From: Synechococcus sp. AG-686-F08
Lineage (GTDB): Bacteria; Cyanobacteriota; Cyanobacteriia; PCC-6307; Cyanobiaceae
Direction of reading: 5' to 3'
DNA length: 33,250 bases
NCBI GenBank assembly: GCA_003210315.1
Contig: QCVQ01000019.1
Location: 1 to 33,250 of the forward strand
In this document: piece by piece, positions 14,748 through 31,715 of the stretch
Position numbering within the stretch: position 1 is the first letter of the stretch
Layout: each line of letters starts with the position of its first letter
The notes under the pieces: generated by a model
Databases searched by the model: none
The model's input: the letters and a program-made list of their open reading frames with translations, nothing else
What the model was told of the DNA's origin: nothing
Program-made: the position numbers and the translations under genes

Positions 14748-14945
14748 TCATTGCTTTGCGATCTGGTCTTGCATCCACTTGGTGACGTCGGACTCCACCC
14801 AGACGACGGTGTTCCCACCCACAGAGATCTGCCTAGGGAACGTTTCTGCCTCCATCCATCGATAGAGGGTTGATCGGGTCACCCCGACCAGGTTGAGCAC
14901 CTCGGGGAGTCGGAGGAACCGAGGTGCTGTGGTTTGTCTGGGCAT
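14748..14945 (-). CDS. AlpA-type winged-helix DNA-binding protein (excisionase/regulator-like)
   Basis: 65 residues with the MerR-like AlpA/excisionase pattern: LRLPEVLNLVGVTRSTLYRW, then FPRQISVGGNTVVWVESDV and KWMQDQIAKQ. The recognition helix is the VTRSTLYRWM stretch. AlpA-type proteins regulate or direct excision of cryptic prophages, satellites and integrated plasmids. Its start overlaps the stop of the 89-aa gene (ATGA), and a terminator follows, so it is the last gene of the operon. No integrase is visible next to it, which is unusual for this family. Confidence 0.85.
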   Translation of the reverse strand: MPRQTTAPRFLRLPEVLNLVGVTRSTLYRWMEAETFPRQISVGGNTVVWVESDVTKWMQDQIAKQ

Positions 14946-15214
14946 CAGATAGTCGCTCCCCTGCGATGCCGCTGCGCGTTCATTCGCTCCAACGCAAAAT
15001 CAAGGTCCTCCAAGAACCACTCCACGTCCTCAAGCAGGTCGGGGTAGAGGAAGGCATGGACATCGATGGCATTGACCAGAAAGTCGTTAGCGCTGTCCGA
15101 TGTCCCATAAGGGCGAAGACCCATCAGAGACCGTGCCTCCTCAATGGTCTCGATCTGTTCTGCGGTTGGAACCCAGTCCGCCAGTTTCGGGTTGGTGCTG
15201 AAAGGAGTGCTCAT
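14945..15214 (-). CDS. Small acidic protein between helicase and AlpA genes
   Basis: 89 residues, not recognised. It contains PTAEQIETIEEARSLMGLRP and a strongly acidic C-terminal half (FLYPDLLEDVEWFLEDLDFA) predicted helical, ending in a basic tail RMNAQRHRRG. Its ATG overlaps the helicase stop and its TGA overlaps the alpA start, so the three products are probably made in a coupled fashion. A replication accessory or regulator role is inferred from the operon only. Confidence 0.72.
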   Translation of the reverse strand: MSTPFSTNPKLADWVPTAEQIETIEEARSLMGLRPYGTSDSANDFLVNAIDVHAFLYPDLLEDVEWFLEDLDFALERMNAQRHRRGATI

Positions 15215-16995
15215 CAGACCGACACCTCCTCTGGATCGAACAGGAAGTCGGTGAAACGACCACCAGTCACCACTGGTTCGGGCGCAGGATCAGGTTCCTG
15301 AGGGGTGTCACCGGACTCGGCACCAGTCATGACTCCCTTCTGAGCATCCAGTAGATACCAGTCCTTGTTCTCACCGTTCACCGTCTTCAACCAACGACCA
15401 TTGGGTCGATCAGGGTTGACTCTGTATCCAAGTCCCGTGCAGACGTTCTTAAAGGTGCTGGTCTTCCACTTGGAGGAGTACTCAGAGAATCGTTCGAACT
15501 CCGGGTAATACCCGAAGAAGGCAATGACCTCGTCCTTGCTGACTTCTGATCCGTTATCGACAACGCCCTGAATGAACTTGGTCAGTTCGTCCAGGAGCAT
15601 CTGGTCGCCATAACAGATCTTGAGCAACTGGCGTTCTGCCATGACGTTGTCCTCGAACTTGACCAGACCGTTCTTGAGGTACTGGTCCAGGCAGTAAACG
15701 CAGGTCGAATAGAAGGCAGACCACTCGTTCTGATCCCAGACCTTCTTGTCGCAAAGACGTCCTCCGTGGAAGTCGGCAGGGGTCTTACCCGTGAGGTCCT
15801 CCTGCTCTCCGTAGTACGTACTGATCGGTGCAAACCAGATGCGTCGTCGGTCCGAACGGTGCGTCGTGGAGATCGTGTAGTTGGTCGTGATGACCAACTT
15901 GGGTGCCTTGTCCTCATCAATCACCAACTTGGCGACACCTTTGTCCTCAACGGTGAAACCATCAGTGATCTGGTTGTAGAGGGTCTCAAGTTCGAAGTCC
16001 TTGGTTGTGTCAGAGAGCACGACGATCTCCTTGTCAGGGGTGAATCCAGACATGAGAAATCTGTTGTCCCCTGTCTTCTCCTTCTTCATATCGACAAAGT
16101 GCCAGGGTTTGATGTGCCGGAACGACTTGGCAATGATCGATTTGCCATTGCCTCCTGCCTTCCACTCCGTTGTGCGGTCGTAGAAGACGATTGCTCTTCT
16201 GTTTTCGGGTGGATAGAAGTTATGGAGCAGATATCCATAGGAGGTAACAAGGGTCTTGAGCATTCCGTGATTGACCACCCAACGACCTGATTGCTTCTCT
16301 TGTGCCAGGTTCTGCATGAAGTCCCACCAGATGCCGTGGGGACCTTCTTCGAGGTTGTCCTCTTTGAAGTCGGCAGGACGGATCTGCTTCTCCCAGACAA
16401 AAATTTCGGGAGGCAAGACCGCGTAGGGAATAAGCGTCGGAGGTCGGTGCTTCGTGACCACCACAACTCCATTGCGGAAGCAGACATGTGCCTGATCATC
16501 CATGTCCTTAAGAGGACGTTGAGGCACTGCTTCGACTTTGCCTTTGTCGTCTTCTGACTCCACGAGAGGGAGAGAGGGGAGGAACTTGAGAGTCCAGGTC
16601 GTGAACAGATCACTTCGATCGTGTACCCGTTCAATTAGGTGCTCAACGTTGATGTCTCCTGCCATACCCCCGATCACCTCAAGGGTGGTGAGAGTCCAGT
16701 CAAAGATCTTTTCCGAGACCTCCATGTCCTTGATGGACCCAAGGATCTTCACTCGACGACCAAGTTTCTGGACGATCAGATACGGACCGTCCTCCTGGTC
16801 TGGTTCTCGAAATTTGTAGAACCCGAAAGCAGGGAGGAACTCTTTTACATATCTGAATGCATTGTGCTTTGAAAGTTTTGCAATCCTTTTTTTGTTTTCT
16901 TTGTCTGGATACCAGAAGAAAGATTTGCGAATAGAACCACTTGGTTCGATCACCGACATAGTGTTCGAACCGATAATTTCCCTTGCTGTAAACAT
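15214..16995 (-). CDS. SF3/D5-type helicase, putative replication protein of the element
   Basis: 593 residues. Walker A is WKAGGNGKSIIAK (GGNGKS, residues 281-286), Walker B EIVVLSD (323-329), sensor 1 KLVITTNY (366-373), followed by an RSDRRRIWF arginine stretch (380-388) in the arginine-finger position. This is the arrangement of phage/plasmid D5-like primase-helicases. The N-terminal 270 residues show no catalytic primase motif that I can identify, so DNA unwinding is better supported than priming. The start ATG at 16995 is preceded by AGAGGG at good spacing, and that leader contains one of the island's 8-bp repeat triplets. First gene of the operon ending with alpA. Confidence 0.85.
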   Translation of the reverse strand: MFTAREIIGSNTMSVIEPSGSIRKSFFWYPDKENKKRIAKLSKHNAFRYVKEFLPAFGFYKFREPDQEDGPYLIVQKLGRRVKILGSIKDMEVSEKIFDWTLTTLEVIGGMAGDINVEHLIERVHDRSDLFTTWTLKFLPSLPLVESEDDKGKVEAVPQRPLKDMDDQAHVCFRNGVVVVTKHRPPTLIPYAVLPPEIFVWEKQIRPADFKEDNLEEGPHGIWWDFMQNLAQEKQSGRWVVNHGMLKTLVTSYGYLLHNFYPPENRRAIVFYDRTTEWKAGGNGKSIIAKSFRHIKPWHFVDMKKEKTGDNRFLMSGFTPDKEIVVLSDTTKDFELETLYNQITDGFTVEDKGVAKLVIDEDKAPKLVITTNYTISTTHRSDRRRIWFAPISTYYGEQEDLTGKTPADFHGGRLCDKKVWDQNEWSAFYSTCVYCLDQYLKNGLVKFEDNVMAERQLLKICYGDQMLLDELTKFIQGVVDNGSEVSKDEVIAFFGYYPEFERFSEYSSKWKTSTFKNVCTGLGYRVNPDRPNGRWLKTVNGENKDWYLLDAQKGVMTGAESGDTPQEPDPAPEPVVTGGRFTDFLFDPEEVSV

Positions 16996-17004
16996 AGAAC
17001 CCTC

Positions 17005-17028
17005 TGTTAATCTGTTATTTTGTTATTT
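17005..17028 (-). repeat. 8-bp repeat triplet, copy A (helicase leader)
   Basis: On the minus strand three units of the consensus WTAACRRA follow one another at 8-bp pitch (ATAACAAA, ATAACAGA, TTAACAGA), 10 bp upstream of the helicase ATG. The same DNA on the plus strand includes the -35-like TTGTTA of the promoter for the small gene at 17071. A protein bound here could control both directions. Confidence 0.75.
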
Positions 17029-17047
17029 GTATAAATTGTGATACAAT
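17020..17047 (+). promoter_or_regulatory. Probable sigma70-type promoter for the small gene at 17071
   Basis: TTGTTA (17020-17025), a 16-bp spacer and TACAAT (17042-17047), about 23 bp before the ATG at 17071. The -35 lies inside repeat triplet A, suggesting control by whatever binds those repeats. Confidence 0.5.
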
Positions 17048-17070
17048 ACAATCATATTTACTAGAAATAT

Positions 17071-17184
17071 ATGCAAGCAGTTATCGATAAGTCGACAGAA
17101 AATAAGGCGAGTGAAGTTAAACCTCAACTCACCCTTAAAAGAACTTCTCCCGCTCCGGGTGTGTATGTTTATAAGTGGGTATGA
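17071..17184 (+). CDS. 37-aa small protein in the helicase upstream region
   Basis: ATG at 17071, TGA at 17182-17184. The peptide starts MQAVIDKSTENKASEVKPQL and ends SPAPGVYVYKWV: polar and charged N-terminal half, hydrophobic-aromatic C-terminus, no membrane span. It has a good promoter in front, is divergent from the helicase gene and is enclosed by two 8-bp repeat triplets (17005 and 17186). No ribosome-binding site is evident. The location would suit a replication or copy-number regulator, which is inference. Family not recognised. Confidence 0.5.
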   Translation: MQAVIDKSTENKASEVKPQLTLKRTSPAPGVYVYKWV

Positions 17185-17185
17185 C

Positions 17186-17209
17186 CAACAAATTAACGGA
17201 ATAACACTT
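17186..17209 (+). repeat. 8-bp repeat triplet, copy D
   Basis: Units ACAACAAA-like, TTAACGGA and ATAACACT at 8-bp pitch on the plus strand, directly after the stop of the 37-aa gene. It shares a further GAAACTG downstream with copy E at 30242, so the similarity extends beyond the triplet. Confidence 0.7.
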
Positions 17210-17459
17210 AGAAACTGAATTCAGGAGTGTTTTCTAATTGAAGTGAAGAGACGAACCGATTGACATCATCCTGCAGTCTCTTTTGATAGGGACCACCTGC
17301 TCCAGGACCAGGAACAGTGAATGAACGTTTTTGTCCTCCATAGAAGGCAACCAAACGTTTATGTCCTCCGCGTCTCTTGGCGACGTGAAAGGTTCCTTCA
17401 TCAGAGATGCGACCAAGGAACTTCGTGACCTTACGGATATATGCGTGGGAAGTGCTCAT
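17208..17459 (-). CDS. Small basic protein, weakly HicA-like
   Basis: 83 residues, basic. The middle (AKRRGGHKRLVAFYGGQKRS followed by FTVPGPGAGG) faintly recalls the GSHxxF...TVP pattern of HicA-type double-stranded-RNA-binding toxins, but no HicB-like antitoxin partner is apparent in the neighbouring gene, so I do not call a toxin. The start ATG overlaps the stop of the upstream gene (ATGA). AT-rich cargo composition. Confidence 0.6.
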   Translation of the reverse strand: MSTSHAYIRKVTKFLGRISDEGTFHVAKRRGGHKRLVAFYGGQKRSFTVPGPGAGGPYQKRLQDDVNRFVSSLQLENTPEFSF

Positions 17460-17947
17460 GCATCCTCCTGAGCACAGGTGTTCTCAAAGACAATGCAGTT
17501 ATCCATGGTAAGTGAATGAAATCCTTCCCCTTTTGGCAGGACATACTCAACATGTATATCTGAAATAAACTCTTCATTTTGGTTGAAGAATTCATCGATA
17601 GAAGAGAATCTATTGCGAAGACTCAAAAGCAAGTCGTCGGTAAGTGTCTCTTCAGTGTCTTTGAGGTCGGCAAGAAAGATAAAGTTGTAGTCAGGCAATC
17701 CTTCTTCGAGTCGATTATTCCATTCAGGAAAGTCTGGGTAGAACATCTCAAAGTAGAGATCGATCTCATATGTGTCTCCTACCTGCGGAAAGTCTTCAAC
17801 GGGAGTACTAGTACGACCATCCGCTTTTACGCGAAATCTACAACCAGTGCGACTGCGAAACTGCTGCATCAGCAAAGTAAATTCGTCGATGCATTTATTA
17901 GGAACTTGGTCAATGATGTAACTGATTTTTGGTTTTTTTGTAGTCAT
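17456..17947 (-). CDS. Hypothetical acidic cargo protein
   Basis: 163 residues, start MTTKKPKISYIIDQVPNKC. Acidic, with aromatic-rich stretches (YEIDLYFEMFYPDFPEWNNR) and an internal DLKDTEETLTDDLLLSLRNR helix. No family recognised. It overlaps the next gene by 4 bp. Its own leader carries hairpin element copy 1, so it is separated from the gene upstream by a structured RNA element. Confidence 0.65.
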   Translation of the reverse strand: MTTKKPKISYIIDQVPNKCIDEFTLLMQQFRSRTGCRFRVKADGRTSTPVEDFPQVGDTYEIDLYFEMFYPDFPEWNNRLEEGLPDYNFIFLADLKDTEETLTDDLLLSLRNRFSSIDEFFNQNEEFISDIHVEYVLPKGEGFHSLTMDNCIVFENTCAQEDA

Positions 17948-17967
17948 ATCAAGTCGGAACTATTAAT

Positions 17968-18034
17968 GGGGACAAGCACCATCAGTCGCCTGGTCCCCAG
18001 CAGGGTTTATTGACGGTCTGAAGTCGTCAGTAAA
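17968..18034 (-). repeat. Tandem hairpin element, copy 1
   Basis: Minus-strand order: directly after the TGA of the 18035-18679 gene comes stem TTTACTGACG / CGTCAATAAA (18006-18034, one G-U pair, 9-nt loop). Then comes CCC and a second structure GGGGAC...GTCCCC (17968-17973 with 17993-17998) enclosing CAG-GCGA-CTG. The next gene starts 20 bp later. No T-run follows, so it is not an ordinary terminator. Confidence 0.85.
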
Positions 18035-18679
18035 TCAAACTGAATGCAGTTGAGAAAGAGTAGAAGTAACCAGAGAAGACAGTTGCGCTACTTCTTTTAC
18101 GGTCTTATTCAGTGCCTCTTGCTCCTTCGATTCTGCAGACTGCTTTTCCTGGAGTTTCCACACATATTCAAAGTAAGAAGCACCACGAGCAATCACAGGA
18201 AATGTCATATAGGAATAACCGCGATCAATTGCACGGTCGTATTCAGAAGGGTCCTTGTAGATCCATGTAATAGGTTCCTCAGACAGAAGGTTTCCCGCAA
18301 TTTGTTGGATGAAATTGCGGTGCTCCTGCACGGTTGCCTGAACCAGTTTCGGGGAGTTGCGGTAGGTCATCAACATGAGAAGTGCATCAGCAGCACTCCA
18401 TGTCTCATATACAGGGACATAGAGAACCTCACGATTAATCACTTGACGACTTGGTGAGAAGTCACGTTCGACCTGATCTTGGACTCCGTACTTGCGCATG
18501 TAGTCAAAGACTATGGTCCTCTCTTCTTCAGATTCCCAGGAAACGCATTCAGAAAAGAAAGGGAGGAACTTCGCCCGCATCTTCTCCGAAGAGTAATAGT
18601 AATAGCGTTCTTCATTAACCAACTTGGTGTCTGCAATTGCAATAATGGATTCAACGAACTTCTTGCGATCAAATAGCAT
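18035..18679 (-). CDS. Hypothetical cargo protein with C-terminal coiled-coil-like region
   Basis: 214 residues, start MLFDRKKFVESIIAIADTKL. Aromatic-rich early region (ERYYYYSSEKMRAKFLPFFS). The last 45 residues (LQEKQSAESKEQEALNKTVK and onwards) look like a helical coiled coil. No catalytic motif or family recognised. Both sides are marked by hairpin elements (copy 2 in its leader, copy 1 immediately behind the stop), so it behaves like one unit of a punctuated array. Confidence 0.65.
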   Translation of the reverse strand: MLFDRKKFVESIIAIADTKLVNEERYYYYSSEKMRAKFLPFFSECVSWESEEERTIVFDYMRKYGVQDQVERDFSPSRQVINREVLYVPVYETWSAADALLMLMTYRNSPKLVQATVQEHRNFIQQIAGNLLSEEPITWIYKDPSEYDRAIDRGYSYMTFPVIARGASYFEYVWKLQEKQSAESKEQEALNKTVKEVAQLSSLVTSTLSQLHSV

Positions 18680-18714
18680 GATTAAAAAGTATTAGAGATA
18701 AGAAATAAAAGAAT

Positions 18715-18779
18715 GGGACTCTTACCAGCAGTCTCCTGGTCCCTGCAGGGTTTATTGACGGTCTGAGGTCGTCAGTAAA
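18715..18779 (-). repeat. Tandem hairpin element, copy 2
   Basis: Minus strand: starting 9 bp after the stop of the 18789-19145 gene, stem TTTACTGACG / CGTCAATAAA (18751-18760 with 18770-18779), then CCCTGCA and a second structure GGGAC...GTCCC (18715-18719 with 18739-18743) enclosing CAG-GAGA-CTG. Relative to copy 1 the tetraloop changes GCGA to GAGA, still GNRA, and the outer stem keeps pairing. Confidence 0.85.
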
Positions 18780-18788
18780 TCTGTCTCT

Positions 18789-19145
18789 TCAGAGATCGTC
18801 AATCACAGGCATATTTGTTGGATAGAGATCCTTATGATTGCCCTCGTAATCTCCCTTGCTCATGAAGGCGATTCTGCTTTCTACTGCATCTTCGAAGTAG
18901 TCACCTTCTTCGGCATCTCTGATTCGGTCATAGAAGATCTCCATTGCTTGATCTTTATTAGGAATATCATTGGCATCAATTTCGACGAGATGGTAGTTGC
19001 TAGTAAGTTTTTGAGCAAGGTCGAATCGTTTAATTCTACGTAGTGGATCAATAAACGGATTAAGGATATCGTCCATTCCGACATGCACCACTCTGATCAA
19101 AAAGTGATCAGCACAAAGGTCCAAAGGTGTTTCGGTCGAAGTCAT
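18789..19145 (-). CDS. Hypothetical acidic cargo protein
   Basis: 118 residues, start MTSTETPLDLCADHFLIRVV. Acidic second half (FYDRIRDAEEGDYFEDAVES). No recognisable family, signal or membrane span. The start overlaps the stop of the upstream gene by 4 bp (ATGA), so it is translationally coupled to it. Hairpin element copy 2 lies 9 bp behind its stop. Confidence 0.62.
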   Translation of the reverse strand: MTSTETPLDLCADHFLIRVVHVGMDDILNPFIDPLRRIKRFDLAQKLTSNYHLVEIDANDIPNKDQAMEIFYDRIRDAEEGDYFEDAVESRIAFMSKGDYEGNHKDLYPTNMPVIDDL

Positions 19146-19729
19146 ACTGAATAAGACGAAGGGAACAAGAAAGCAAACTGTCCTTTGACGGGAATACCCA
19201 CACGGCGACAGAGACGTGCAGATCTCTCACAGCAAACAATTGATGGAGCAACGAAATCGATTTGATCACGCACTTCGTTCACAAGGGTCTTCAGAGAATC
19301 AAGGTCCTCCATGACCATTGCCTGCCATTGCTTATAAACAACACTTCCGTATTTGCGAGTGATATCTTCTACGATTACATCCGGATGGAAACGGTAGCAG
19401 TCACCTACCCAGACATTAATGGTGAGATCCCAAAACTTGAATTGTGTATCCCAAGAAACAGCAAGACTCCATGATCCACAGTTTCCCATTACACGGACTT
19501 TTATGCGAGTATGCGATGGGTTTACACACTCAAATTCAGGATCAATATCAACCTCAACGGCATGCCAATTAGGCGTCAGAAGATCTGACAAAGAGTATGA
19601 ATGCTTTCGGCGAGAGTAATAGTTATACCAATCGCTTTGTTGAGCATACGGATCATATCTCTGTTGCTTTAGGAAGTTTTTAATGTATTTATCAGTGGTT
19701 TCTGTTGTCTTACCAAATCCAACTGCCAT
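19142..19729 (-). CDS. Hypothetical cargo protein
   Basis: 195 residues from the ATG at 19729 (MAVGFGKTTETTDKYIKNFL). I chose this start because it sits next to the stop of the upstream gene (19731); the frame itself is open to 19774. The central part is tryptophan-rich (SWSLAVSWDTQFKFWDLTIN), suggesting a beta-rich soluble domain, and the C-terminus contains a cysteine pair (IVCCERSARLCRR). No family recognised. Confidence 0.6.
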   Translation of the reverse strand: MAVGFGKTTETTDKYIKNFLKQQRYDPYAQQSDWYNYYSRRKHSYSLSDLLTPNWHAVEVDIDPEFECVNPSHTRIKVRVMGNCGSWSLAVSWDTQFKFWDLTINVWVGDCYRFHPDVIVEDITRKYGSVVYKQWQAMVMEDLDSLKTLVNEVRDQIDFVAPSIVCCERSARLCRRVGIPVKGQFAFLFPSSYSV

Positions 19730-19730
19730 A

Positions 19731-20081
19731 TCAGTTCTGAATTGCGATAGATGTATTAGGGATTTGCTTGACACTCATGAAGATCTTTCCAGCGATGAAA
19801 TCGATCAGGTATTCCTTGATGTGCCTGGAGTAATGATCGGAATAAACGAGGTCTTCGATTTCGTAATCAGAGAGTCGACCTTCTTCTTGCAAGTGCTCTG
19901 GGAAACGATCCAGTACACGTCCAATGCAGTCTTCAAATTCGTGCGGTATTTCTTGGCGCACGAAAGTAATCGCAAGATTGCGTAGTTCTTTTTGATTCAT
20001 TTTCAAAACATGAGTAAAAGTGTTCTTTGCCCTTTGGCGTCCTTCCAGAACTGAATCTTCCAGATCCTGCCTAGAAACCAC
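19731..20081 (-). CDS. Hypothetical acidic cargo protein
   Basis: 116 residues if the GTG directly behind the upstream TAA (20081) is used; 89 residues from the ATG at 20000 (MNQKELRNLAITFVRQEIPH). The sequence is helical and acidic (HEFEDCIGRVLDRFPEHLQE, YEIEDLVYSDHYSRHIKEYL). No family recognised. Part of the tightly packed minus-strand run from 20635 to 18789. Confidence 0.55.
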   Translation of the reverse strand: MVSRQDLEDSVLEGRQRAKNTFTHVLKMNQKELRNLAITFVRQEIPHEFEDCIGRVLDRFPEHLQEEGRLSDYEIEDLVYSDHYSRHIKEYLIDFIAGKIFMSVKQIPNTSIAIQN

Positions 20082-20207
20082 TTATGCCAATACATATTCC
20101 TCTGGTGAAAAGTCGGACTCCTGCTCTTCCCAGATCAACTGCTCTTCAGGAAATGGCGCATAAAGACCTTCTTCCAGTTCCTGGAAGATTCGTGCATAGA
20201 GATTCAT
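20082..20207 (-). CDS. 41-aa acidic small protein
   Basis: ATG at 20205-20207, TAA at 20082-20084. The peptide begins MNLYARIFQELEEGLYAPFP and ends SPEEYVLA, with 12 acidic residues and only one basic residue. Its stop is immediately followed by the GTG of the next gene. The composition is protein-like and it fits the operon spacing, but it is too short for family assignment. Confidence 0.5.
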   Translation of the reverse strand: MNLYARIFQELEEGLYAPFPEEQLIWEEQESDFSPEEYVLA

Positions 20208-20251
20208 GACTTAGTTGCGATTGGATATGTGATCAGTTCTCGGGTGTGCCC

Positions 20252-20635
20252 TCAGGCACAAACCCGCTGCTTTTTCTCTCGGGTGTAAACCGAGGGCATA
20301 CCTGCCAGCAGTTCCGTTGAGGCAATGCCTTCCTTCTGAGCACTCACGGGTGCCTTCCAGGTTGCAAGACTCTTATCAACGGTTACGCGAGCACGAGGAG
20401 TACGGCGTTTGTTCGAACGCTTAGGTGCACCAGATTGTGCTGCTCCAGACCAGGTGCGTTGAGTCTTCTCTTTGAGGCGCTCACTAGTGGTGGTTGCGCC
20501 TGAGCGAACCAAGGGATTCACGTGGAGTGCCTTGTATCTCTTGAGGAAACGTCCCTCTTCTCTGCTGAGCGTGGAATATCCGAATTTGTCTGCTTGTTCT
20601 TTGAGTTGGTTGTAGATCTCAGTGGCAGTGAGCAA
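20252..20635 (-). CDS. Basic hypothetical protein, first gene of a minus-strand cargo run
   Basis: 127 residues from a TTG at 20635 (LLTATEIYNQLKEQADKFGY). A helical N-terminus is followed by a long basic, disordered stretch (GAPKRSNKRRTPRARVTVDK), suggesting nucleic-acid binding. GC-richer than the genes it precedes, so it belongs with the element backbone. There is no ATG and the frame continues open upstream, so the start is uncertain. Transcription probably comes from the minus-strand promoter in the control region at 20778-20867. Confidence 0.5.
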   Translation of the reverse strand: MLTATEIYNQLKEQADKFGYSTLSREEGRFLKRYKALHVNPLVRSGATTTSERLKEKTQRTWSGAAQSGAPKRSNKRRTPRARVTVDKSLATWKAPVSAQKEGIASTELLAGMPSVYTREKKQRVCA

Positions 20636-20777
20636 CGTTGATGCGGCGAAGGAACTGATGCCCCAATGACCGAAGGGGCGTCTTGCTTGAGGAAGTACTC
20701 CTCTTTCGCGGCGGTGAAGGGTTTGAAGGCAGTTACCGATTGCCTAAGAGGAGAAGCAAGTCCTGCCCTCCCCTGAT

Positions 20778-20867
20778 GTCTATAGTATAGACGACTTCTC
20801 CGTGCGGAGACGTAACACCCGCCAGTTCGTCGACCGCCCACTCTCTGCGACAGTCTCCGTGCGGAGA
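20778..20867. promoter_or_regulatory. Control region with two TCTCCG palindromes (copy 1)
   Basis: Contains a perfect 15-bp palindrome GTCTATAGTATAGAC (20778-20792) that includes a TATACT -10 on the minus strand. Two identical 14-bp palindromes TCTCCGTGCGGAGA follow at 20797-20810 and 20854-20867, 57 bp apart. It lies between divergent genes (20252-20635 minus; 20941-21129 plus). A closely similar arrangement at 24172-24255 argues for a shared repressor. Confidence 0.7.
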
Positions 20868-20940
20868 CGCGGTATGTTGCGGGAGTTGGAAGCGATGCCT
20901 TGAGAGCACCACCAACACCTCAAACCAGATTTCAAAACCA

Positions 20941-21129
20941 ATGACTTTCCCTTGCCTTGCCGTCTGGGCACTGGTCCTGCTGCTGCTGCCCCTCCATCTC
21001 CTGCTCTGGATCACCGAGAGCAGAAGCACCAGCATCCAGAGGATGAGGAAGAGGGGGGCAACGTGGAAGGAGATTGGTGCCCGTTATGGGTGCTCACCAT
21101 CCACAGCAAGGAGGTGGTGCTTGCCCTGA
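20941..21129 (+). CDS. Membrane-anchored helix-turn-helix small protein
   Basis: 62 residues. One hydrophobic span at residues 5-23 (CLAVWALVLLLLPLHLLLW) is followed by a basic linker (RSTSIQRMRKRG) and a helix-turn-helix of the resolvase/Hin type: TWKEIGARYGCSPSTARRW (residues 41-59). A DNA-binding domain tethered to a membrane in so short a protein is unusual. It lies downstream of the palindrome pair at 20797-20867 and converges on the Api92-like gene with no gap. Confidence 0.6.
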   Translation: MTFPCLAVWALVLLLLPLHLLLWITESRSTSIQRMRKRGATWKEIGARYGCSPSTARRWCLP

Positions 21130-21867
21130 CTACTTCTGACCAACCAGTTCGGTCATGGTCGGAGCAGAGGTCTTCTTCATGACCTGGAGGGTCAGGGCGT
21201 ACTTAATCGGGGTGAGGAGTTCATCCATGGCGTCTGCTTCGACGTCGCACCAGAGGTCCCACATTTCATCTGTAGCGTCTTCGTCCTCAGGGTTTTCTGC
21301 CTTCTCCCAAAGACCTGGGTGGTTCTCCTTTGCCCAGGTCTCCTTCAACTTGCTGATATCAGAGCAGTAGTCCAGGACCACTCCGTCTTTGGCGACAGTG
21401 ACGCCAAAAAAGTCATTTCCGTCCTCGCTGTAGGTGCTCGTCAACAAGACACCAGGGAACTTCTTTGAGAGAACCTCCATGCAGTTCTCATTGAGAGGAG
21501 ACCAGGCACTCACGAAGGGGATGTCGAATTCGGTATCGGGTCCCTTGGGGAACTGCAGTTCATAGAAGGAGTAATCGATCCACTTGGTGCCCCAGTTCAT
21601 GTTGCGCCAATCCCACCAGGAGTCCTCACGGATCGTGGGTTCGTTCTCCAGGATCTTCTGCTTCTCTTCTTCGGTCTTGGCATAGGAAGCAGCAATCTCT
21701 GGGAACAACTTGGGGACTGGAGTCACCGAGTAGTCGGGTTCGGGGTAGAGGGTGGTCAGGAAACCTCCTATCTTCTTTTCCCCTGTGACACAGGCATCGA
21801 GTAACTCTTTCCACTGAGCAGGAGACAGACCCTCAAAAGAAAGTGTATTAGAACAATCATTTGCCAT
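21130..21867 (-). CDS. Api92-like (DUF1281-type) phage/mobile-element protein
   Basis: 245 residues. The start MANDCSNTLSFEGLSPAQW and the WDWRNMNWGTKWIDYSFYEL stretch are hallmarks of the phage Api92-like/DUF1281 family, whose members usually begin MANWCxNTL and carry NWGTKWD. The family is common in phages, plasmids and islands; its biochemical role is unknown to me. The rest is acidic (ENPEDEDATDEMWDLWCDVE). GC-rich backbone composition. Confidence 0.78.
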   Translation of the reverse strand: MANDCSNTLSFEGLSPAQWKELLDACVTGEKKIGGFLTTLYPEPDYSVTPVPKLFPEIAASYAKTEEEKQKILENEPTIREDSWWDWRNMNWGTKWIDYSFYELQFPKGPDTEFDIPFVSAWSPLNENCMEVLSKKFPGVLLTSTYSEDGNDFFGVTVAKDGVVLDYCSDISKLKETWAKENHPGLWEKAENPEDEDATDEMWDLWCDVEADAMDELLTPIKYALTLQVMKKTSAPTMTELVGQK

Positions 21868-21869
21868 TT

Positions 21870-22028
21870 TTAGTATTCAGGAAATTCAGAGATTTTGTAT
21901 TCAGCAAGGGAATGGATCATCGTCCATACCCTTTGACCAGAAGCACCCTGCTCATTGCAGAAATACTCCACTATGTCTTCAGTTATCTCAAGCAGATCTT
22001 CTGCTTGTTCTATGTATTCGTTAAGCAA
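21870..22028 (-). CDS. 52-aa acidic small protein
   Basis: TTG start at 22028, TAA at 21870-21872. The peptide (LNEYIEQAEDLLEITEDIVE, then YFCNEQGASGQRVWTMIHSL) is helical and acidic. The start is supported by its leader: the 8-bp repeat triplet, then GGATTCT and the start codon, aligns closely with the helicase leader (triplet, GGGTTCT, ATG). It ends 3 bp before the Api92-like gene. No family recognised. Confidence 0.55.
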   Translation of the reverse strand: MLNEYIEQAEDLLEITEDIVEYFCNEQGASGQRVWTMIHSLAEYKISEFPEY

Positions 22029-22038
22029 AGAATCCAAT

Positions 22039-22060
22039 GTTAATCTGTTAATTTGTTGGG
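22039..22060 (-). repeat. 8-bp repeat triplet, copy C (leader of the 52-aa gene)
   Basis: Minus-strand units (CC)CAACAAA, TTAACAGA, TTAACATT at 8-bp pitch, about 10 bp upstream of the TTG at 22028. With copy A it forms a leader conserved between two otherwise unrelated genes. Confidence 0.7.
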
Positions 22061-22068
22061 ACTCTCAG

Positions 22069-22118
22069 CGCTCCATACGAAGCGGGTTTATTGACGGTCT
22101 GAGTTGATCGTCATGTAT
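22069..22118 (-). repeat. Tandem hairpin element, copy 3
   Basis: Minus strand, directly behind the stop of the 22119-23006 gene: stem TGACG / CGTCA (22092-22096 with 22109-22113), the conserved CTCAGACCGTCAATAAACCC, then a second stem CGCTTC-GTAT-GGAGCG (22069-22084). The second stem differs in sequence from copies 1 and 2 but matches copy 4 with a compensatory change. Confidence 0.8.
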
Positions 22119-23006
22119 TCAATCGATATCGCAGTTGATAAGCATGGGTCGGATCCAAACTTGTTTCACGCTGGACCGATTTACTCCATGTCTCTGTCTT
22201 CTCCAATGTCCACGTCTCATGTGGGGAATGCGGAATCTTCCATTTACGGATTCTTGCTCACCCTTAAAGACTTTGCGGACAGGACGGATATTGAAGTTCT
22301 CTCCTATTACCCGTGGAGCAGTTTTCCGATCCTTGCAAGAAATGGATCCGAAACCAGACTTCCCCTTTATGCCACTTTCTACAGTCACGTACTCAGGATA
22401 TTCCTTGAGCAAGAGAAGAAGATTTAGAGCAAGAGATCTAAGAGATGTATAAACATTAGAATAATTTGATTCGTGATCTTCGCAAAACGGTTGAAGCAGG
22501 CAGGTATCAGTAAAAATACGATCTTGATAAACACTGCCAAACTCATTAACGCCGTATACGACATAGATCAAATCCCTCAAACCCATCCCTGGAAGACCAG
22601 TAAGATCTGGAACCTCCATACTCGACATCTCAAAATGTAATGGTATGTCGACGATATACATCAGAGACACACTCTGCCCCTCGTCCACAAGGAATCCATG
22701 TGGAAGAACGATTTCGAGTACTGGTGAAATATCAGGACTCGAGTAGACCTTTTCTGGCAGGTCTGTCCTGATCAACAATTCGGCAAGACCCTCACTCAAG
22801 AAGTAAGGATCAATCTTTAGTGAGTCGACCCCTCTAATAGTGTTCTTGAGGTCATCAACCTTGCCTGACTCGTCAAGCAAAACAAGTGCCTTAAGGCATT
22901 GTAGATACTCATACTCAAGAAAACCATTGGGTGACCTGAAATTCCTCCTTGGTTTTGGGAATTTGTGCGATCGCAATATGTTGCGATGCCTTTTGGTTAA
23001 GACCAT
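22119..23006 (-). CDS. Cargo protein with C-terminal HMRRGHWRRQ motif
   Basis: 295 residues from the ATG at 23006; a TTG at 23018 adds four. The N-terminal 220 residues are unrecognised (RNFRSPNGFLEYEYLQCLKA; YIVDIPLHFEMSSMEVPDLT). The C-terminus has IPHMRRGHWRRQRHG followed by KQVWIRPMLIN, a small domain I have seen at the ends of proteins in plasmids and integrative elements, of unknown function. Flanked by hairpin element copies 4 (leader) and 3 (behind the stop). AT-rich. Confidence 0.68.
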   Translation of the reverse strand: MVLTKRHRNILRSHKFPKPRRNFRSPNGFLEYEYLQCLKALVLLDESGKVDDLKNTIRGVDSLKIDPYFLSEGLAELLIRTDLPEKVYSSPDISPVLEIVLPHGFLVDEGQSVSLMYIVDIPLHFEMSSMEVPDLTGLPGMGLRDLIYVVYGVNEFGSVYQDRIFTDTCLLQPFCEDHESNYSNVYTSLRSLALNLLLLLKEYPEYVTVESGIKGKSGFGSISCKDRKTAPRVIGENFNIRPVRKVFKGEQESVNGRFRIPHMRRGHWRRQRHGVNRSSVKQVWIRPMLINCDID

Positions 23007-23034
23007 GAATAATGTCAATAGAAGTTGATATCAG

Positions 23035-23078
23035 CACTCCATGCGAAGTGGGTTTATTGACGGTCTGAGGTCGTCAGG
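23035..23078 (-). repeat. Tandem hairpin element, copy 4
   Basis: Minus strand, 3 bp behind the stop of the 23082-23375 gene: stem TGACG / CGTCA (23058-23062 with 23072-23076), the conserved CTCAGACCGTCAATAAACCC, then second stem CACTTC-GCAT-GGAGTG (23035-23050). Compared with copy 3, one G-C pair is replaced by A-U on both sides. Confidence 0.8.
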
Positions 23079-23081
23079 GAA

Positions 23082-23375
23082 TCAACAGTTTTCTCCTATG
23101 ACTGATGCAGCATATAAAATGCGATCAGTCGAAAATACTTCACGACATATAAAAAGATTAGTCAGGAAACTCTCAATTCCATCCTTATCCATCCGATCAG
23201 AGAACTCATAGTTATCTCCAAGAATATTGTTTAAGGTGAATGAACGAGTGGAAAAGTCAACCACTACTTCGTCGCAATGCTCAGAAAAGAATTTGAAACT
23301 TTCTCTGGTATTTTGAACGTCTTTCAAGTCAATAACAAGGCAAGGAGAATATGTTTTTTCTCGGTGTTCTCTCAC
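23082..23375 (-). CDS. Hypothetical cargo protein
   Basis: 97 residues from a GTG at 23375 (REHREKTYSPCLVIDLKDVQ). Alternating hydrophobic/charged strands (EVVVDFSTRSFTLNNILGD) suggest a compact alpha/beta domain. Not recognised. No ATG is available near the start and no ribosome-binding site is clear. The upstream boundary is the hairpin pair at 23384-23434, the downstream one is hairpin element copy 4. Confidence 0.5.
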   Translation of the reverse strand: MREHREKTYSPCLVIDLKDVQNTRESFKFFSEHCDEVVVDFSTRSFTLNNILGDNYEFSDRMDKDGIESFLTNLFICREVFSTDRILYAASVIGENC

Positions 23376-23412
23376 CGATAGGGTTTTGAGTCGGTTTATC
23401 GACTATCAATTG

Positions 23413-23454
23413 CTCCAACATTTATTGATTGGAGTTTGGTCATGGGTCAGTAAA
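23413..23454 (-). terminator. Hairpin behind the 23440 gene; degenerate fifth copy of the hairpin element
   Basis: Two overlapping pairings. CTCCAA / TTGGAG (23413-23418 with 23429-23434) is a perfect local stem just after the stop. In addition TTTATTGA (23421-23428) can pair with TCAGTAAA (23447-23454), exactly the outer eight pairs of the element stem in copies 1 and 2, including the single G-U. The element-like stem overlaps the end of the coding frame. Confidence 0.5.
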
Positions 23455-23706
23455 TAGGTGACCGTTCGGAACGGCATGTAGGGAGTGGCGAGTGCCCGCA
23501 ACCACAAGCACTGCAATATTTGGAGGTTCGACCGATGGCACCTGCTCCCTGAGCAAGTCCTCATATCCATCTGGGAGTGGTCCAGGGAACTCATAGAGAA
23601 ACCTCTCCATGTCCTGAAGGGGGACAAAGAACTTGTCCCCGTTGAGTCGTGGGAAATAAACCCAGAGACCCCTCTCAGTTGAGGTCTGCATAGTTCCCGT
23701 CTGCAT
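23440..23706 (-). CDS. Hypothetical protein, last gene of a three-gene minus-strand set
   Basis: 88 residues from the ATG at 23706 (MQTGTMQTSTERGLWVYFPR), chosen because AAGGGAG lies 6 nt upstream; ATG 23691 is an alternative. Contains KFFVPLQDMERFLYEFPGPL and VPSVEPPNIAVLVVAGTRHS. No recognised family. The first 32 bp overlap the end of the 55-aa gene in another frame. GC-rich backbone composition. Confidence 0.55.
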   Translation of the reverse strand: MQTGTMQTSTERGLWVYFPRLNGDKFFVPLQDMERFLYEFPGPLPDGYEDLLREQVPSVEPPNIAVLVVAGTRHSLHAVPNGHLFTDP

Positions 23707-23842
23707 CCCAGACTCCCTTGAACCTGGTGCCCTTGGAAGGGTTGAAGTTTTTGGAATATTCGATTCGGTAATAACCGCGTTCACTCCGTCGGTCAAAGTT
23801 GCGTTTGTAGTTGCGTCGGTTGTTGCTGGAACGGTCGTACAT
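23675..23842 (-). CDS. 55-aa basic, tyrosine-rich small protein
   Basis: ATG at 23840-23842, TGA at 23675-23677. N-terminal MYDRSSNNRRNYKRNFDRRS is strongly basic; the end FKGVWDADGNYADLN resembles a short folded motif. The composition suggests RNA or DNA binding. It lies 35 bp behind the DUF7249-like gene and overlaps the next gene, consistent with one transcript. Confidence 0.5.
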   Translation of the reverse strand: MYDRSSNNRRNYKRNFDRRSERGYYRIEYSKNFNPSKGTRFKGVWDADGNYADLN

Positions 23843-23877
23843 GGATCCGATTGATTGGTGGGGGGACTGCTCCCGAC

Positions 23878-24120
23878 TCAGAGGTCGGAGAGGCAGTCAT
23901 TCAGTTCTTCGTGGTCCAGTGCTGGATCGGTGAAGGAGATGCCGTCTGGGGTCTCCTTCTTGCCGAAGGTGTGGACCAGGACTTCCGCAAGGTCCTGGTA
24001 GTTCCCACCCCCACTGGAGATGCGACGAGCAAGGACATTGAGGGACTCTTCGTTCCCGATCCACAGAGCAACGTTCCAGGTCTGGTGATTTGCCCAACCG
24101 TTGAAAGTGCCCATGGTCAT
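23878..24120 (-). CDS. DUF7249-like small phage/mobile-element protein
   Basis: 80 residues with the hallmark FNGWANHQTWNVALWIGNEE near the N-terminus; proteins with WxNxxTWNVALW are widespread in phages and mobile elements, with no known activity that I can state. The middle contains YQDLAEVLVHTFG and the end is acidic (DHEELNDCLSDL). Transcription probably starts from the TATTAT -10 on the minus strand at about 24172 in the duplicated control region. Confidence 0.72.
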   Translation of the reverse strand: MTMGTFNGWANHQTWNVALWIGNEESLNVLARRISSGGGNYQDLAEVLVHTFGKKETPDGISFTDPALDHEELNDCLSDL

Positions 24121-24171
24121 CAGGAGGTGAAGGAGTGCGGAGAGGTCGTCCCTCCCCCTTGCTTCCTTTAA

Positions 24172-24255
24172 TAATAGACGACATCTCCGCAGGGAGACGC
24201 AGTGTGTACCACTAAGTCGAACCGTCCACTACCTACGACGATCTCTGCGCGAAGA
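24172..24255. promoter_or_regulatory. Control region with two TCTC palindromes (copy 2)
   Basis: Similar in layout to 20778-20867: an AT-rich -10 (ATAATAG then ACGAC), palindrome TCTCCGCAGGGAGA (24184-24197), a shared inner segment GTCGAACCGTCCACT, and an imperfect palindrome TCTCTGCGCGAAGA (24242-24255), 58 bp apart. Further half-sites occur at about 24381 and 24399. It lies between the divergent DUF7249-like and 300-aa genes. Confidence 0.65.
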
Positions 24256-24443
24256 GTGTCATATAAAAGGCAAAAAGCGTTTGTTTCTCTTTCTCTGGGA
24301 GGGGGAATGCACCCTCGATGCAGGCAGAAATGGTCAAAATTTGCCCGTTAGACCTCTGTCGACACAGAAATGACAACCAATCTCGGAGAAATCATTGAAT
24401 CTCCGCAGAGAACGTCGTAGGGTTTGAGCACAGAGATGAACAG
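24256..24443 (+). other. Leader region of the 300-aa gene, with a possible 14-aa leader peptide
   Basis: At 24307 an ATG preceded by a strong GGGAGGGGGA opens a 14-codon frame ending TAG at 24349-24351 (MHPRCRQKWSKFAR). The ribosome-binding site lies in a GAGGG/CCCTC stem. Additional TCTCGGAGA and TCTCCGCAGAGA half-sites lie at 24381-24412. I see no other gene. Confidence 0.3.
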
Positions 24444-25346
24444 ATGAGCAGTACGACCACCGCTGAGTTCCTTGAGGAAGTGCAGAACGGAGAACTCAAA
24501 GGAACGGTCGACCAAGTGCTCGCTACCTGTGCCGTGATCGCCCGTGCCAAGGGTGTCCTATCGGATGGGGACTTCAGAGACCTGCGTGATCAGTCTCCTT
24601 ATACGGAGAAGGTCTGGTCAAAACTCCTGCAGGTCGGAATGGATGACCGACTGGAAGGGGTGAAAGAGCATCTGCCCCCCAGTTACACCACCCTCCACAA
24701 AATCCACTGCCTCACGGACGAGGAACTCAAGAAGGCAATTCAGGAGGGGCACGTCCATCCCAAGGTCTCTCAGGGTTCTCTGGACCGTTGGTTGAGATAC
24801 GAACGATTCGAGAAGGACGAGGAGGCACCGCCAGAAGACTTCTCTTCTTTGGTGACAGTGCTTGGTCCTTCCGGCATCGAGGAAGACACGCTCAACCGAT
24901 TTAAGGGAGACCTGGAAAAACTGGTCGGGATCTATGGATTCAGGACGCAGTACGAGGGAGAGCAGACGATGGTTGCTCTCCGTCAGCAGAGATCACAGGA
25001 CAACGCAGGAGTACTGGCGCAGACACTGAGCAAGGAACTCAAGAGCACCTGGGATGCGGCAGAGGAGGAACTGAAAACCCAGTTCACCCTCACTTCACTG
25101 GATGAACTGGTGCAGGCACCGATGACCACTTTCACGGGGTTCCTGAACAGGCACCGAAAGGGGAGGGACGAGTTCTGGATGTTCCATGCCCATGACTACA
25201 TCCACAAGATTGCTTTGGAATATTTGAAGGCATCGACCCGTGCTCAGCGATTCAACTACCGACGACGACTAAAAGAAGTGGCAGAGACACACGAGCACTT
25301 GGCATCCAAGGTTCAGGAGACCCTGGATGGAGTCATGAATTACTAG
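24444..25346 (+). CDS. 300-aa DNA-binding-like protein (KorB/DUF3102-like middle), putative replication or partition factor
   Basis: Residues 74-110 (LPPSYTTLHKIHCLTDEELK then GHVHPKVSQGSLDRWLR) resemble the helix-turn-helix region of ParB/KorB-like and DUF3102 proteins, where a lexical pattern of S-x-TL-x-K-x-x-L and an I/VHP motif recurs. The N-terminus holds a second helical segment (LATCAVIARAKGVLSDGDF) and the C-terminus is helical and charged. The paired operators upstream suggest it is repressed with the DUF7249-like gene. GC-rich backbone composition. Function is inferred; no catalytic motif is seen. Confidence 0.6.
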   Translation: MSSTTTAEFLEEVQNGELKGTVDQVLATCAVIARAKGVLSDGDFRDLRDQSPYTEKVWSKLLQVGMDDRLEGVKEHLPPSYTTLHKIHCLTDEELKKAIQEGHVHPKVSQGSLDRWLRYERFEKDEEAPPEDFSSLVTVLGPSGIEEDTLNRFKGDLEKLVGIYGFRTQYEGEQTMVALRQQRSQDNAGVLAQTLSKELKSTWDAAEEELKTQFTLTSLDELVQAPMTTFTGFLNRHRKGRDEFWMFHAHDYIHKIALEYLKASTRAQRFNYRRRLKEVAETHEHLASKVQETLDGVMNY

Positions 25347-25361
25347 AAATATGCATTTGCG

Positions 25362-25385
25362 TTGTTAATCTGTTATTCCGTTATT
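25362..25385 (-). repeat. 8-bp repeat triplet, copy B
   Basis: Minus-strand units ATAACGGA, ATAACAGA, TTAACAAC at 8-bp pitch. Plus-strand TCTGTTATTCCGTTATT (25369-25385) is a perfect inverted match to 30247-30263, so copies B and E frame the cargo block 25.4-30.2 kb. Lies between convergent genes. Confidence 0.75.
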
Positions 25386-30188: not shown

Positions 30189-30241
30189 TCTTTAAAGCGA
30201 CATCTTTTAGACAATTATAGCAATTAACCCTTTAATGCCAT

Positions 30242-30995: not shown

Positions 30996-31084
30996 TCATA
31001 GCAGTGGGTTGGTGTTCGGAAACTCTTGAGTTGCTCAATCAAAAACGAACAGGACGCTCAACTGGGTTCTCAGGAGCAAAATTC

Positions 31085-31137
31085 GTTCGGAAAGGCGTTC
31101 GGTTGCTATACTCTAGAAACACTTACCCTTTCCGAAC
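31085..31137 (+). promoter_or_regulatory. Promoter of the serine recombinase gene bracketed by an 11-bp inverted repeat
   Basis: GTTCGGAAAGG (31085-31095) and its exact reverse complement CCTTTCCGAAC (31127-31137) enclose a TATACT -10 (31107-31112). A further GTTCGGAAA lies at 31014-31022 and GTTCGG at 31097-31102. Such spaced, partly direct and partly inverted sites resemble a resolvase binding (res-like) region that also represses its own gene. Confidence 0.6.
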
Positions 31138-31139
31138 AG

Positions 31140-31715
31140 ATGGGACGGAAAATCGGATACGCAAGGTGCTCAACCACTCATCAATCCACCGACTCGCAAG
31201 TGGATGACCTCAAAGCAGATGGATGCGAAGAGGTCTTCTTTGAAAAGGTCTCAAGCACCACAACCCTGGAGCAACGACATCAACTGCGTGCGTGCCTATC
31301 TGTTCTCCGTGAAGGAGACCTGCTCTGTGTTGCCAAGTTGGACCGCCTTGGGAGGAGTCAGGTCGAGGTCATCAACCGTCTGAATGATCTCCAGCAAGAG
31401 GGAATCCATGTAAGGACCCTGGATGGATTAATAGACACCAAGGCACTTGGCAAGATGGCACCTCTTGTCGTTGGACTCCTTACTGGACTTTCAGAAGTGG
31501 AAAGATCTCTTATCCAGGAGAGAAGCAGAGAGTCCGTAGATCACCGCAGAAAGACAGGCGGAAACCTTGGAGGGAGACCTAAAACCTCCAACAAGAAAGA
31601 GTCCTTGGTCTTGCGTCTCCGCAAAGAAGGAGAGTCCTATCGGTCGATCAAGGATCAAACAGGTCTGGCACTCGCAACCATCACACGCATCATCAAAGAA
31701 GAAGAGGTGGTGTGA
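31140..31715 (+). CDS. Small serine recombinase (resolvase/invertase family)
   Basis: 191 residues from the ATG at 31140, chosen because the catalytic N-terminus begins there (MGRKIGYARCSTTHQSTDSQ, nucleophile Ser11). Other family residues are seen in LCVAKLDRLGRSQVEVINRL and in EVERSLIQERSRES (long E helix). A C-terminal helix-turn-helix follows GRPK (SYRSIKDQTGLALATITRII). The size fits Tn3-resolvase/Gin-type enzymes that resolve or invert DNA, not the large phage integrases. Its stop overlaps the next gene's start (ATG at 31715), so it heads a four-gene operon. Confidence 0.93.
   Translation: MGRKIGYARCSTTHQSTDSQVDDLKADGCEEVFFEKVSSTTTLEQRHQLRACLSVLREGDLLCVAKLDRLGRSQVEVINRLNDLQQEGIHVRTLDGLIDTKALGKMAPLVVGLLTGLSEVERSLIQERSRESVDHRRKTGGNLGGRPKTSNKKESLVLRLRKEGESYRSIKDQTGLALATITRIIKEEEVV

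What the first reader, a model, noticed from the sequence alone, without database searches (positions are those of the whole stretch)
17968..23454. Cargo genes punctuated by a conserved hairpin element placed directly behind stop codons
Four strong copies (18006-18034, 18751-18779, about 22087-22113, about 23053-23076) and one degenerate copy (23421-23454) share a stem with the invariant minus-strand segment CAGACCGTCAATAAA(CCC). In every case the element begins within 0-9 bp of, or overlaps, the stop of a cargo gene, and the genes themselves are unrelated. The elements have no T-run, so they are not plain terminators. The gene-plus-3'-element layout is that of a cassette array: either recombination sites by which cargo is gained, or a shared RNA signal (processing, stability or translation control). 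attC sites of integrons have a similar placement, but the sequence here lacks the GTTRRRY core and no integron integrase is visible.
Basis: partly seen in the sequence, partly recalled or inferred. Interest (0 to 1): 0.75.

Follow-up and report, generated by a model that had tools for sequence, protein, structure and literature searches.

The report
Shared RNA pseudoknot before cargo genes
The repeated hairpin is one half of a conserved RNA pseudoknot that mobile gene islands of picocyanobacteria place just before the start of many unrelated cargo genes, which suggests a common switch or translation aid that makes those genes interchangeable modules.

Summary
The four strong copies are real (0 of 100 shuffles give four); the fifth is not supported. 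The hairpin is half of a larger element: an H-type pseudoknot whose loop pairs with a segment 17-32 nt beyond the first stem (40 in one copy), across a second, variable hairpin. I found 36 copies in 24 genomes of one picocyanobacterial family. A phylum sample of 292 genomes gave no hit outside that family, and no Rfam family matched an element in the stretches scanned. The crossing helix keeps pairing while its letters change (loop-swap test, 0 of 5000). Best-supported reading: a 5' leader of the following gene. In 22 of 36 copies an ATG frame starts 15-50 nt on, against 13-16% of control positions, and the 22 nt before led ATGs are strikingly G-poor (4.7% against 21%). Lying behind a stop is commoner than chance (15 of 36) but not the rule. 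attC is rejected. In a relative (G172) two cargo genes stand in swapped places around the unit element-gene-element, so elements do mark module borders. Most likely function: shared translation-level control, laid out like the T4 gene 32 leader. The mechanism is inferred.

The parts
17968..18038 (-). Element e1. S1a 18025-18029, loop 18016-18024, S1b 18011-18015, S2b (CTGA) 17982-17985, closing GTCCCC at the 3' end; leads gene 17456-17947, follows gene 18035-18679
18715..18783 (-). Element e2. S1a 18770-18774, loop 18761-18769, S1b 18756-18760; S2 weak here (CAG/CTG, 3 bp; CTG at 18729-18731); leads gene 18035-18679, follows gene 18789-19145
22064..22122 (-). Element e3. S1a 22109-22113, 12-nt loop 22097-22108, S1b 22092-22096, second hairpin CGCTTC-GTAT-GGAGCG, S2b CTGAG 22064-22068; would lead small ORF 21861-22043 (TTG start), follows gene 22119-23018
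23031..23085 (-). Element e4. S1a 23072-23076, loop 23063-23071, S1b 23058-23062, second hairpin CACTTC-GCAT-GGAGTG (compensatory to e3), S2b CTGA 23031-23034; leads gene starting ATG 23006, follows gene 23082-23375
23420..23454 (-). Claimed fifth, degenerate copy: not supported as a member
   Evidence: not reported by models R1 (unfiltered, E up to 10) or R3 (E up to 1)
17456..17947 (-). Cargo gene (163 aa, no Pfam or PHROG hit) led by e1; in relative G172 a partial homologue stands directly after the 19142-19774 homologue, without an element
18035..18679 (-). Cargo gene (214 aa, no Pfam or PHROG hit) flanked by elements e2 and e1; its homologue in G172 is flanked by elements too
18789..19145 (-). 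Cargo gene (118 aa) before e2; in G172 its homologue stands after the second element
21861..22043 (-). Small ORF behind e3; its homologue in G172 is about 1.8 kb from the nearest element
22119..23018 (-). Cargo gene (phrog_15934-like) led by e4, followed by e3
23082..23375 (-). Cargo gene with DUF7294, followed by e4
14748..14945 (-). AlpA-family regulator (mobile-element context)
   Evidence: Pfam PF05930, E 1.3e-17
24444..25346 (+). 300-aa island protein, no Pfam or NCBIfam hit; relatives in 18 of 201 family genomes (own genome included), in part in the same islands
31026..31715 (+). Serine resolvase of the island region
   Evidence: Pfam PF00239

Best explanation
The element is a cis-acting RNA: an H-type pseudoknot with a hairpin set between its helices (5' S1a - loop carrying S2a - AC - S1b - NNTAAACC - variable hairpin - 0-3 nt, often AGA - S2b 3'). 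It sits in the leader of the gene that follows, 15-48 nt before its ATG in 22 copies (23-34 nt in 18 of these), and is followed by a G-poor, U/A-rich start region, mostly without a Shine-Dalgarno sequence. Picocyanobacterial integrative islands repeat it before unrelated cargo genes, so that these share one post-transcriptional control or initiation aid. I think it acts on translation start: the knot lies at the upstream edge of where an initiating ribosome would stand, either as a landing aid or as the nucleation site of an RNA-binding protein that spreads over the start region, as gp32 does on T4 gene 32 mRNA. Shown: sequence, covarying structure, position, restriction to one family in the sample, unrelated neighbours, gene exchange at the borders. 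Inferred: that it acts as RNA in the cell, that translation is the step, and which factor binds.
For: Covariation: S1 has 13 letter combinations, 8 of them fully paired (such as TGACG/CGTCA, CGAGG/CCTCG, AGACG/CGTCT, TGAGG/CCTCA, TGACT/AGTCA), 5 with a mismatch at the outer pair. S2 has CTCAG/CTGAG, TTCTG/CAGAA, ACCAG/CTGGT, CGCAA/TTGCG, ACCTG/CAGGT, TCCCG/CGGGA. Of 28 genome-by-loop classes 13 form five pairs (11 all Watson-Crick), against 4.9 and 2.3 with loops swapped, 0 of 5000 (19-copy set). The middle hairpin has z below 0 in 30 of 34 distinct segments, mean -2.8. Position: 22 of 36 copies 15-50 nt before an ATG of a frame of at least 40 codons, controls 12.8% and 15.8%. L106, L122, L128 and three of four copies in G091 have a close start but no close stop. 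In six loci of genus g18 (small AT-rich genomes, Prochlorococcus by my inference) the knot is conserved while much of the following DNA is not, and a TATAAT-like box precedes it, by eye. Start region: G 4.7% in 23 leaders against 21.2% in 169 intergenic controls, p 4e-10 (control starts are script-called). Diversity: 23 led genes give two related pairs.
Against: No expression data. 14 of 36 copies lack an ATG at 15-50 nt by the script's rule: six g18 orthologues (63-156 nt), L059 (209 nt) and L104 (none), both with a convergent gene after them, G054 = RCC307 (none), both G268 copies (none, 99 nt), L061 (147 nt), e3 (196 nt; a TTG frame starts at about 28 nt) and L133 (script took an earlier ATG; another at about 27 nt). 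Copies also lie near stops more often than chance (15 of 36 against 14.4% of positions), and 12 of those 15 stops share one reading phase, which a pure leader does not explain. e2, L103b and L061 have only three S2 pairs in place; 8 of 36 have four, not five, S1 pairs. Folded singly without the knot, only e1 is clearly more stable than shuffles (RNA z -2.6, -0.4, -1.7, -0.8 for e1-e4). SD-like motifs: 2 of 23 leaders against 36 of 169 controls, no clear difference. A pseudoknot could also form in single-stranded DNA.
Confidence: 0.58

Rival explanations
1. Module-border repeat: the element spreads within an island and serves as homology by which genes are exchanged (as proposed for T4-type phage regulatory cassettes, recalled); its RNA role is secondary.
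For: Copies in one genome resemble each other more (0.80, 22 pairs) than copies between genomes (0.55, 608 pairs; 0.57 without orthologous sets). W18789 and W17456 have swapped slots around element-W18035-element between window and G172. e3 and its closely similar counterpart in L083 have different neighbours on both sides. G091 has four copies in 1.9 kb.
Against: Covariation in the helices is not needed for homologous exchange. The swapped genes are only 39% and (over 46 aa) 59% identical, so no base-level breakpoint can be shown.
Confidence: 0.4
2. 3'-end or intercistronic signal belonging to the gene before it: transcript processing, stability, or translation termination/readthrough at the UGA.
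For: Close stop in 15 of 36 copies; TGA at the same model columns in 7 copies and one common phase in 12 of the 15. In L059 and L104 a convergent gene follows.
Against: 21 of 36 copies have no stop within 25 nt; around L122, L106 and L128 no upstream gene is near. The in-frame extensions past the UGA differ and end after 16-39 codons in e1-e4 (read by eye).
Confidence: 0.2
3. attC-like site of a cassette integrase working on folded single-stranded DNA.
For: Hairpin between genes, unrelated neighbours, arrays; tyrosine recombinases lie within about 7 kb of a copy in 4 of 7 genomes examined.
Against: The core pair is absent in 35 of 36; no integron integrase over cut-off in the incomplete own genome. 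The pseudoknot partner strand has no counterpart in attC (recalled).
Confidence: 0.04
4. Unrecognised small-molecule riboswitch or self-cleaving ribozyme of pseudoknot type.
For: Compact knot with conserved unpaired AC and TAAAC; leader position; the glutamine-II riboswitch of picocyanobacteria is also a leader pseudoknot of small ORFs (PMC6698751, PMC2864571; passages).
Against: No Rfam match on an element at lax thresholds in the stretches scanned; led genes are mostly unrelated; helix order differs from glutamine-II.
Confidence: 0.12

Closest known systems
Phage T4 gene 32 leader pseudoknot (gp32 operator)
   Same: Pseudoknot upstream of the AUG (67 nt in T4), followed by an unstructured A+U-rich start region (PMC3014915, passages)
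   Different: One gene there, many unrelated genes here; extra hairpin between the helices here; no binding protein known here
T4-type phage mobile regulatory cassettes (Arbiol et al. 2010)
   Same: Conserved structured intergenic unit linked to modular shuffling (content recalled; only the reference with its title was seen)
   Different: Here a covarying pseudoknot in cyanobacterial integrative islands; a promoter is suggested only for the g18 copies
Glutamine-II riboswitch / Downstream-peptide motif (RF01704)
   Same: Picocyanobacterial leader pseudoknot in front of small ORFs (PMC2864571, PMC6698751, passages)
   Different: No Rfam hit; different conserved letters; there the extra hairpin lies between the first two strands of the crossing helices, here between S1b and S2b
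STAXI motif (Weinberg et al. 2010)
   Same: Pseudoknot near genes of mobile elements (PMC2864571, passage)
   Different: Tandem repeats beside DNA-handling genes; no match in the Rfam scans (that it is in Rfam is recalled)
Integron attC
   Same: Hairpin between unrelated genes
   Different: No core-site pair; no integron integrase seen; pseudoknot instead of a single folded hairpin (attC anatomy recalled)

Membership tests
Integron attC site | Inverse core RYYYAAC and core GTTRRRY at the ends | tested here: not met
   1 of 36 copies has both motifs in the stretch, none of the window's four
Integron attC site | Integron integrase in the genome | tested here: inconclusive
   TIGR02249: one match of 32 bits, cut-off 265; such sub-threshold matches ring in all 14 control genomes too; the genome is only 59% complete
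Any Rfam 15 family | Covariance-model match on the element | tested here: not met
   Whole window at gathering: only the SRP RNA. Lax scans covered e1 and e2, L103 and seven further loci: the matches listed lie off the elements, among them sub-threshold S15-leader matches (26 bits, cut-off 39.5). e3 and e4 were scanned at gathering only
Glutamine-II riboswitch RF01704 | Covariance-model match | tested here: not met
   No match
Glutamine-II riboswitch RF01704 | Glutamine binding | not testable with these tools
   needs a binding assay
Gene 32-type translational operator | Pseudoknot upstream of the AUG plus A+U-rich start region | tested here: met
   (position and composition; lack of structure in the start region was not computed)
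Gene 32-type translational operator | Autogenous binding protein encoded downstream | not testable with these tools
   Led genes are mostly unrelated; no binding data
Intrinsic terminator | GC hairpin directly followed by a T-run | tested here: not met
   T5 in 10 of 36 copies, at 31-70 nt after S1b; some copies have TTTTATT after a GTCCC/TCCCC stem, so a terminator role of those is not excluded
T4-type regulatory cassette | Early promoter plus stem-loop between genes (recalled) | tested here: inconclusive
   TATAAT-like box before S1 in most of six g18 loci, by eye; no promoter test in the others

The most novel reading that the evidence does not exclude
A plug-in leader: picocyanobacterial islands carry one pseudoknot operator in front of many unrelated cargo genes, read by one trans-acting factor (an island, host or infecting-phage RNA-binding protein). 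Any gene recombined behind a copy joins the same regulon, and the copies themselves supply the homology for that recombination.
Probability: 0.3. Interest if true: 0.85.

Novelty: new variant of a known kind. Interest (0 to 1): 0.7.

Why it matters
Genomic islands hold much of the variable gene pool of the ocean's most abundant photosynthetic cells (general knowledge), and how freshly acquired orphan genes become expressed there is unclear. A shared leader RNA at module borders would give one answer that can be tested in cultured strains, a handle to find islands and functionally linked orphan genes, and an RNA family that the Rfam 15 scans did not recognise.

Tried and rejected
(1) Element in viruses or plasmids: the 16-mer gave 19 IMG/VR stretches, none with the rest of the element by eye. 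A longer pattern gave one, judged chance by eye. e1 against phages and 17966-18790 against plasmids gave nothing convincing. (2) genome contigs pattern: 11 stretches; only Synechococcus RCC307 and Cyanobium usitatum look like members; 9 dropped by eye. (3) First genus scan with R1: 14 places outside the own genome, 4 kept (L041, L042, L043, L044), 10 dropped; two of the dropped were read in larger stretches without window-protein relatives; one of them, L045, does keep the loop letters CTCAGAC. (4) Alignment A4 misplaced e3 and was not used. (5) 'SD-less initiation is special': not supported by SD counts; G-poverty is. (6) One protein marking all element-bearing islands: none; the widest family, with a tyrosine recombinase domain, is in 9 of the 22 genomes put in. 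(7) A looser pattern in the own genome (up to 3 mismatches) gave 16 places against 14 for the reversed control, so no further copies. (8) Papers: no description of this element found with the terms (listings) and passages of PMC1242208, PMC2864571, PMC6698751; subscription journals are mostly not held.
Full report
OBSERVATION. The 16-mer TTTATTGACGGTCTGA occurs four times on the + strand at the stated places and nowhere else in that genome or in 30 genus mates. Read in gene direction (minus strand) the four copies share TCAGACCGTCAATAAACCC. The fifth, degenerate copy is not recognised by the models.

EXTENDING THE ELEMENT. A covariance model of the four first hairpins (R1) was run on 31 genus genomes. 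Of 14 places outside the own genome I kept four, because the downstream half looked alike too (L041, L042, L043, L044). Larger stretches showed that these lie in islands sharing window proteins. R2 was run on 400 family genomes: 11 genomes, 17 places. R3 was run on 249 genomes of genus g18 (8 hit), 16 of genus g45 (2), a phylum draw of 292 (3, all in the same family) and a family draw of 399 (21, in 10 of 59 genera). The draws overlap. My working set is 36 copies in 24 genomes.

STRUCTURE. Reading the copies side by side, the loop of the first hairpin is complementary to a segment after a second hairpin: an H-type pseudoknot with an embedded hairpin. In one search, with two rows re-parsed, 33 of 36 copies form at least four contiguous S2 pairs in place (G-U allowed); e2, L103b and L061 form three. 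The partner starts 17-32 nt after S1b, in L082 at 40. S1 has five pairs in 28 copies and four in 8. Swapping loops among 28 genome-by-loop classes gave 4.9 complete five-pair helices on average (maximum 12) against 13 observed, and 2.3 (maximum 8) against 11 all-Watson-Crick; 0 of 5000 swaps reached either value. A first test on 19 copies gave 0 of 5000 for the summed helix length. The middle hairpin folds better than mononucleotide shuffles in 30 of 34 distinct segments. Folded singly and without the knot, the copies e1-e4 are not regularly more stable than shuffles. Conserved unpaired letters are AC before S1b, TAAAC after it and often AGA before S2b. This is strong evidence for a structured nucleic acid, most simply RNA. 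No Rfam family matched on an element.

POSITION. Over all copies the relation to the gene after it is the more general one. In 22 of 36 copies an ATG of a frame of at least 40 codons stands 15-50 nt after S2b (23-34 nt in 18), against 12.8% of random positions and 15.8% of positions 65 nt after stops. Stops lie within -15 to +25 nt of S1a in 15 of 36, against 14.4% of positions, so this is enriched too, but less often. L106, L122, L128 and three of the four G091 copies have a start close by but no close stop. Conversely L059 and L104 have a stop but a convergent gene after them, and RCC307 has no frame in reach. In six g18 loci (small AT-rich genomes, Prochlorococcus by my inference) the knot is conserved, mostly behind a TATAAT-like box (by eye), with a frame 63-156 nt on. 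The 22 nt before led ATGs hold 4.7% G, against 21.2% before 169 intergenic control starts (p 4e-10), and are A+T-rich (74% against 56%). SD-like motifs are 2 of 23 against 36 of 169, which I do not count as a clear difference.

GENES AND SHUFFLING. The led genes are mostly unrelated: 23 proteins give two related pairs. One pair is window 18035-18679 with a G172 gene; in both genomes this gene has an element before and after it. Around it the order differs. Window: 21130 - 20252 - 19731 - 19142 - 18789 - [e2] - 18035 - [e1] - 17456 - 17208. G172: 21130' - 20252' - 19731' - 19142' - 17456' (partial) - other gene - [element] - 18035' - [element] - 18789' - others - 17208'. So 18789 and 17456 stand in each other's place; the one next to 19142 has no element before it, the one after 18035 has one. 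The element after 18035 is identical in 84 of 98 aligned bases between the two genomes, while the 18035 protein is 31% identical. e3 and the copy at L083:14258 share the unusual 12-nt loop and a similar second hairpin (97 of 120 aligned bases) but have different genes on both sides. Copies within one genome are more alike than copies between genomes (0.80 against 0.55). These facts fit local multiplication and exchange at the borders. They do not show a dedicated recombinase, and the attC core pair is absent in 35 of 36 copies.

CONTEXT. The island in the window has an AlpA-type regulator, a serine resolvase, a DUF5906/phrog_28855-like protein and cyanophage-like genes. Tyrosine recombinases lie within about 7 kb of a copy in 4 of 7 genomes examined (G172, G023, G004, G152). 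They look like integrative elements; whether they are phage satellites or tycheposon-like was not tested.

MECHANISM. I commit to a cis-acting leader RNA that works on translation start of the following gene. The distance, the G-poor start region and the parallel to the T4 gene 32 operator (pseudoknot 67 nt before the AUG, unstructured A+U-rich stretch after it; PMC3014915, passages) are the reasons. Whether it helps (ribosome landing) or represses (protein nucleation) cannot be told from sequence. UNEXPLAINED: in 12 of the 15 copies with a close stop that stop falls in one reading phase, seven of them at the same TGA. This hints that termination of the upstream gene matters too.

NOVELTY. Leader pseudoknots and module-border stem-loops are known kinds. 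A pseudoknot repeated before many unrelated mobile genes and seen in one family only is, as far as the held libraries show, undescribed.

Noticed in passing
17003-17027, 17185-17206, 22038-22060, 25355-25385, 30240-30277: A second dispersed repeat of the island (TGTTAATCTGTTATTTTGTTATT and its reverse complement) in both orientations, mostly near gene borders; it looks like a regulator or recombinase binding site.
   Followed up: no
about 20790-20872 and 24185-24255: Another short hairpin repeat around CTCCGTGCGGAGACG / CTCCGCAGGGAGACG, seen by eye.
   Followed up: no
24040-24109: 70 bases inside the DUF7249 gene are 83.8-85.7% identical to cyanophage genomes in the 20 rows listed (93 phage records match somewhere in 17000-24500; 73 were not listed), suggesting host-phage gene exchange.
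   Followed up: no
stops before elements, window 18001-23085 and related loci: In 12 of 15 copies with a close upstream stop the stop is in the same reading phase relative to the element; seven use a TGA at the same model columns.
   Followed up: partly
L139 (G091), copies at L130-L133: Four near-identical pseudoknots within 1.9 kb, each before a different small gene (two of them related); two copies also share about 35 nt upstream by eye.
   Followed up: partly
L107, L121, L123-L126, about 60 nt before the knot: A conserved block TGTGACAAT-N3-AAAAAAGAACA (with a few changes) precedes the knot in six g18 loci; possible activator site or small-RNA gene.
   Followed up: no
15214-16995 and 24444-25346: A 593-aa DUF5906/phrog_28855-like protein and a 300-aa protein without a known family; relatives of the latter are in 18 of 201 family genomes, own genome included.
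   Followed up: partly
32555-33250: TPR protein gene built of 102-nt tandem repeats, six units in the repeat table, running to the end of the window.
   Followed up: no
L059 and L113: Element-bearing DNA lies beside an argJ-like gene in both G022 and RCC307, a possible shared insertion spot (gene name recalled).
   Followed up: no
L120:2159-2285 and L128:1293-1419 (same place of G573): Sub-threshold match to the ribosomal S15 leader family (26 bits, cut-off 39.5), downstream of a pseudoknot copy and not overlapping it.
   Followed up: no
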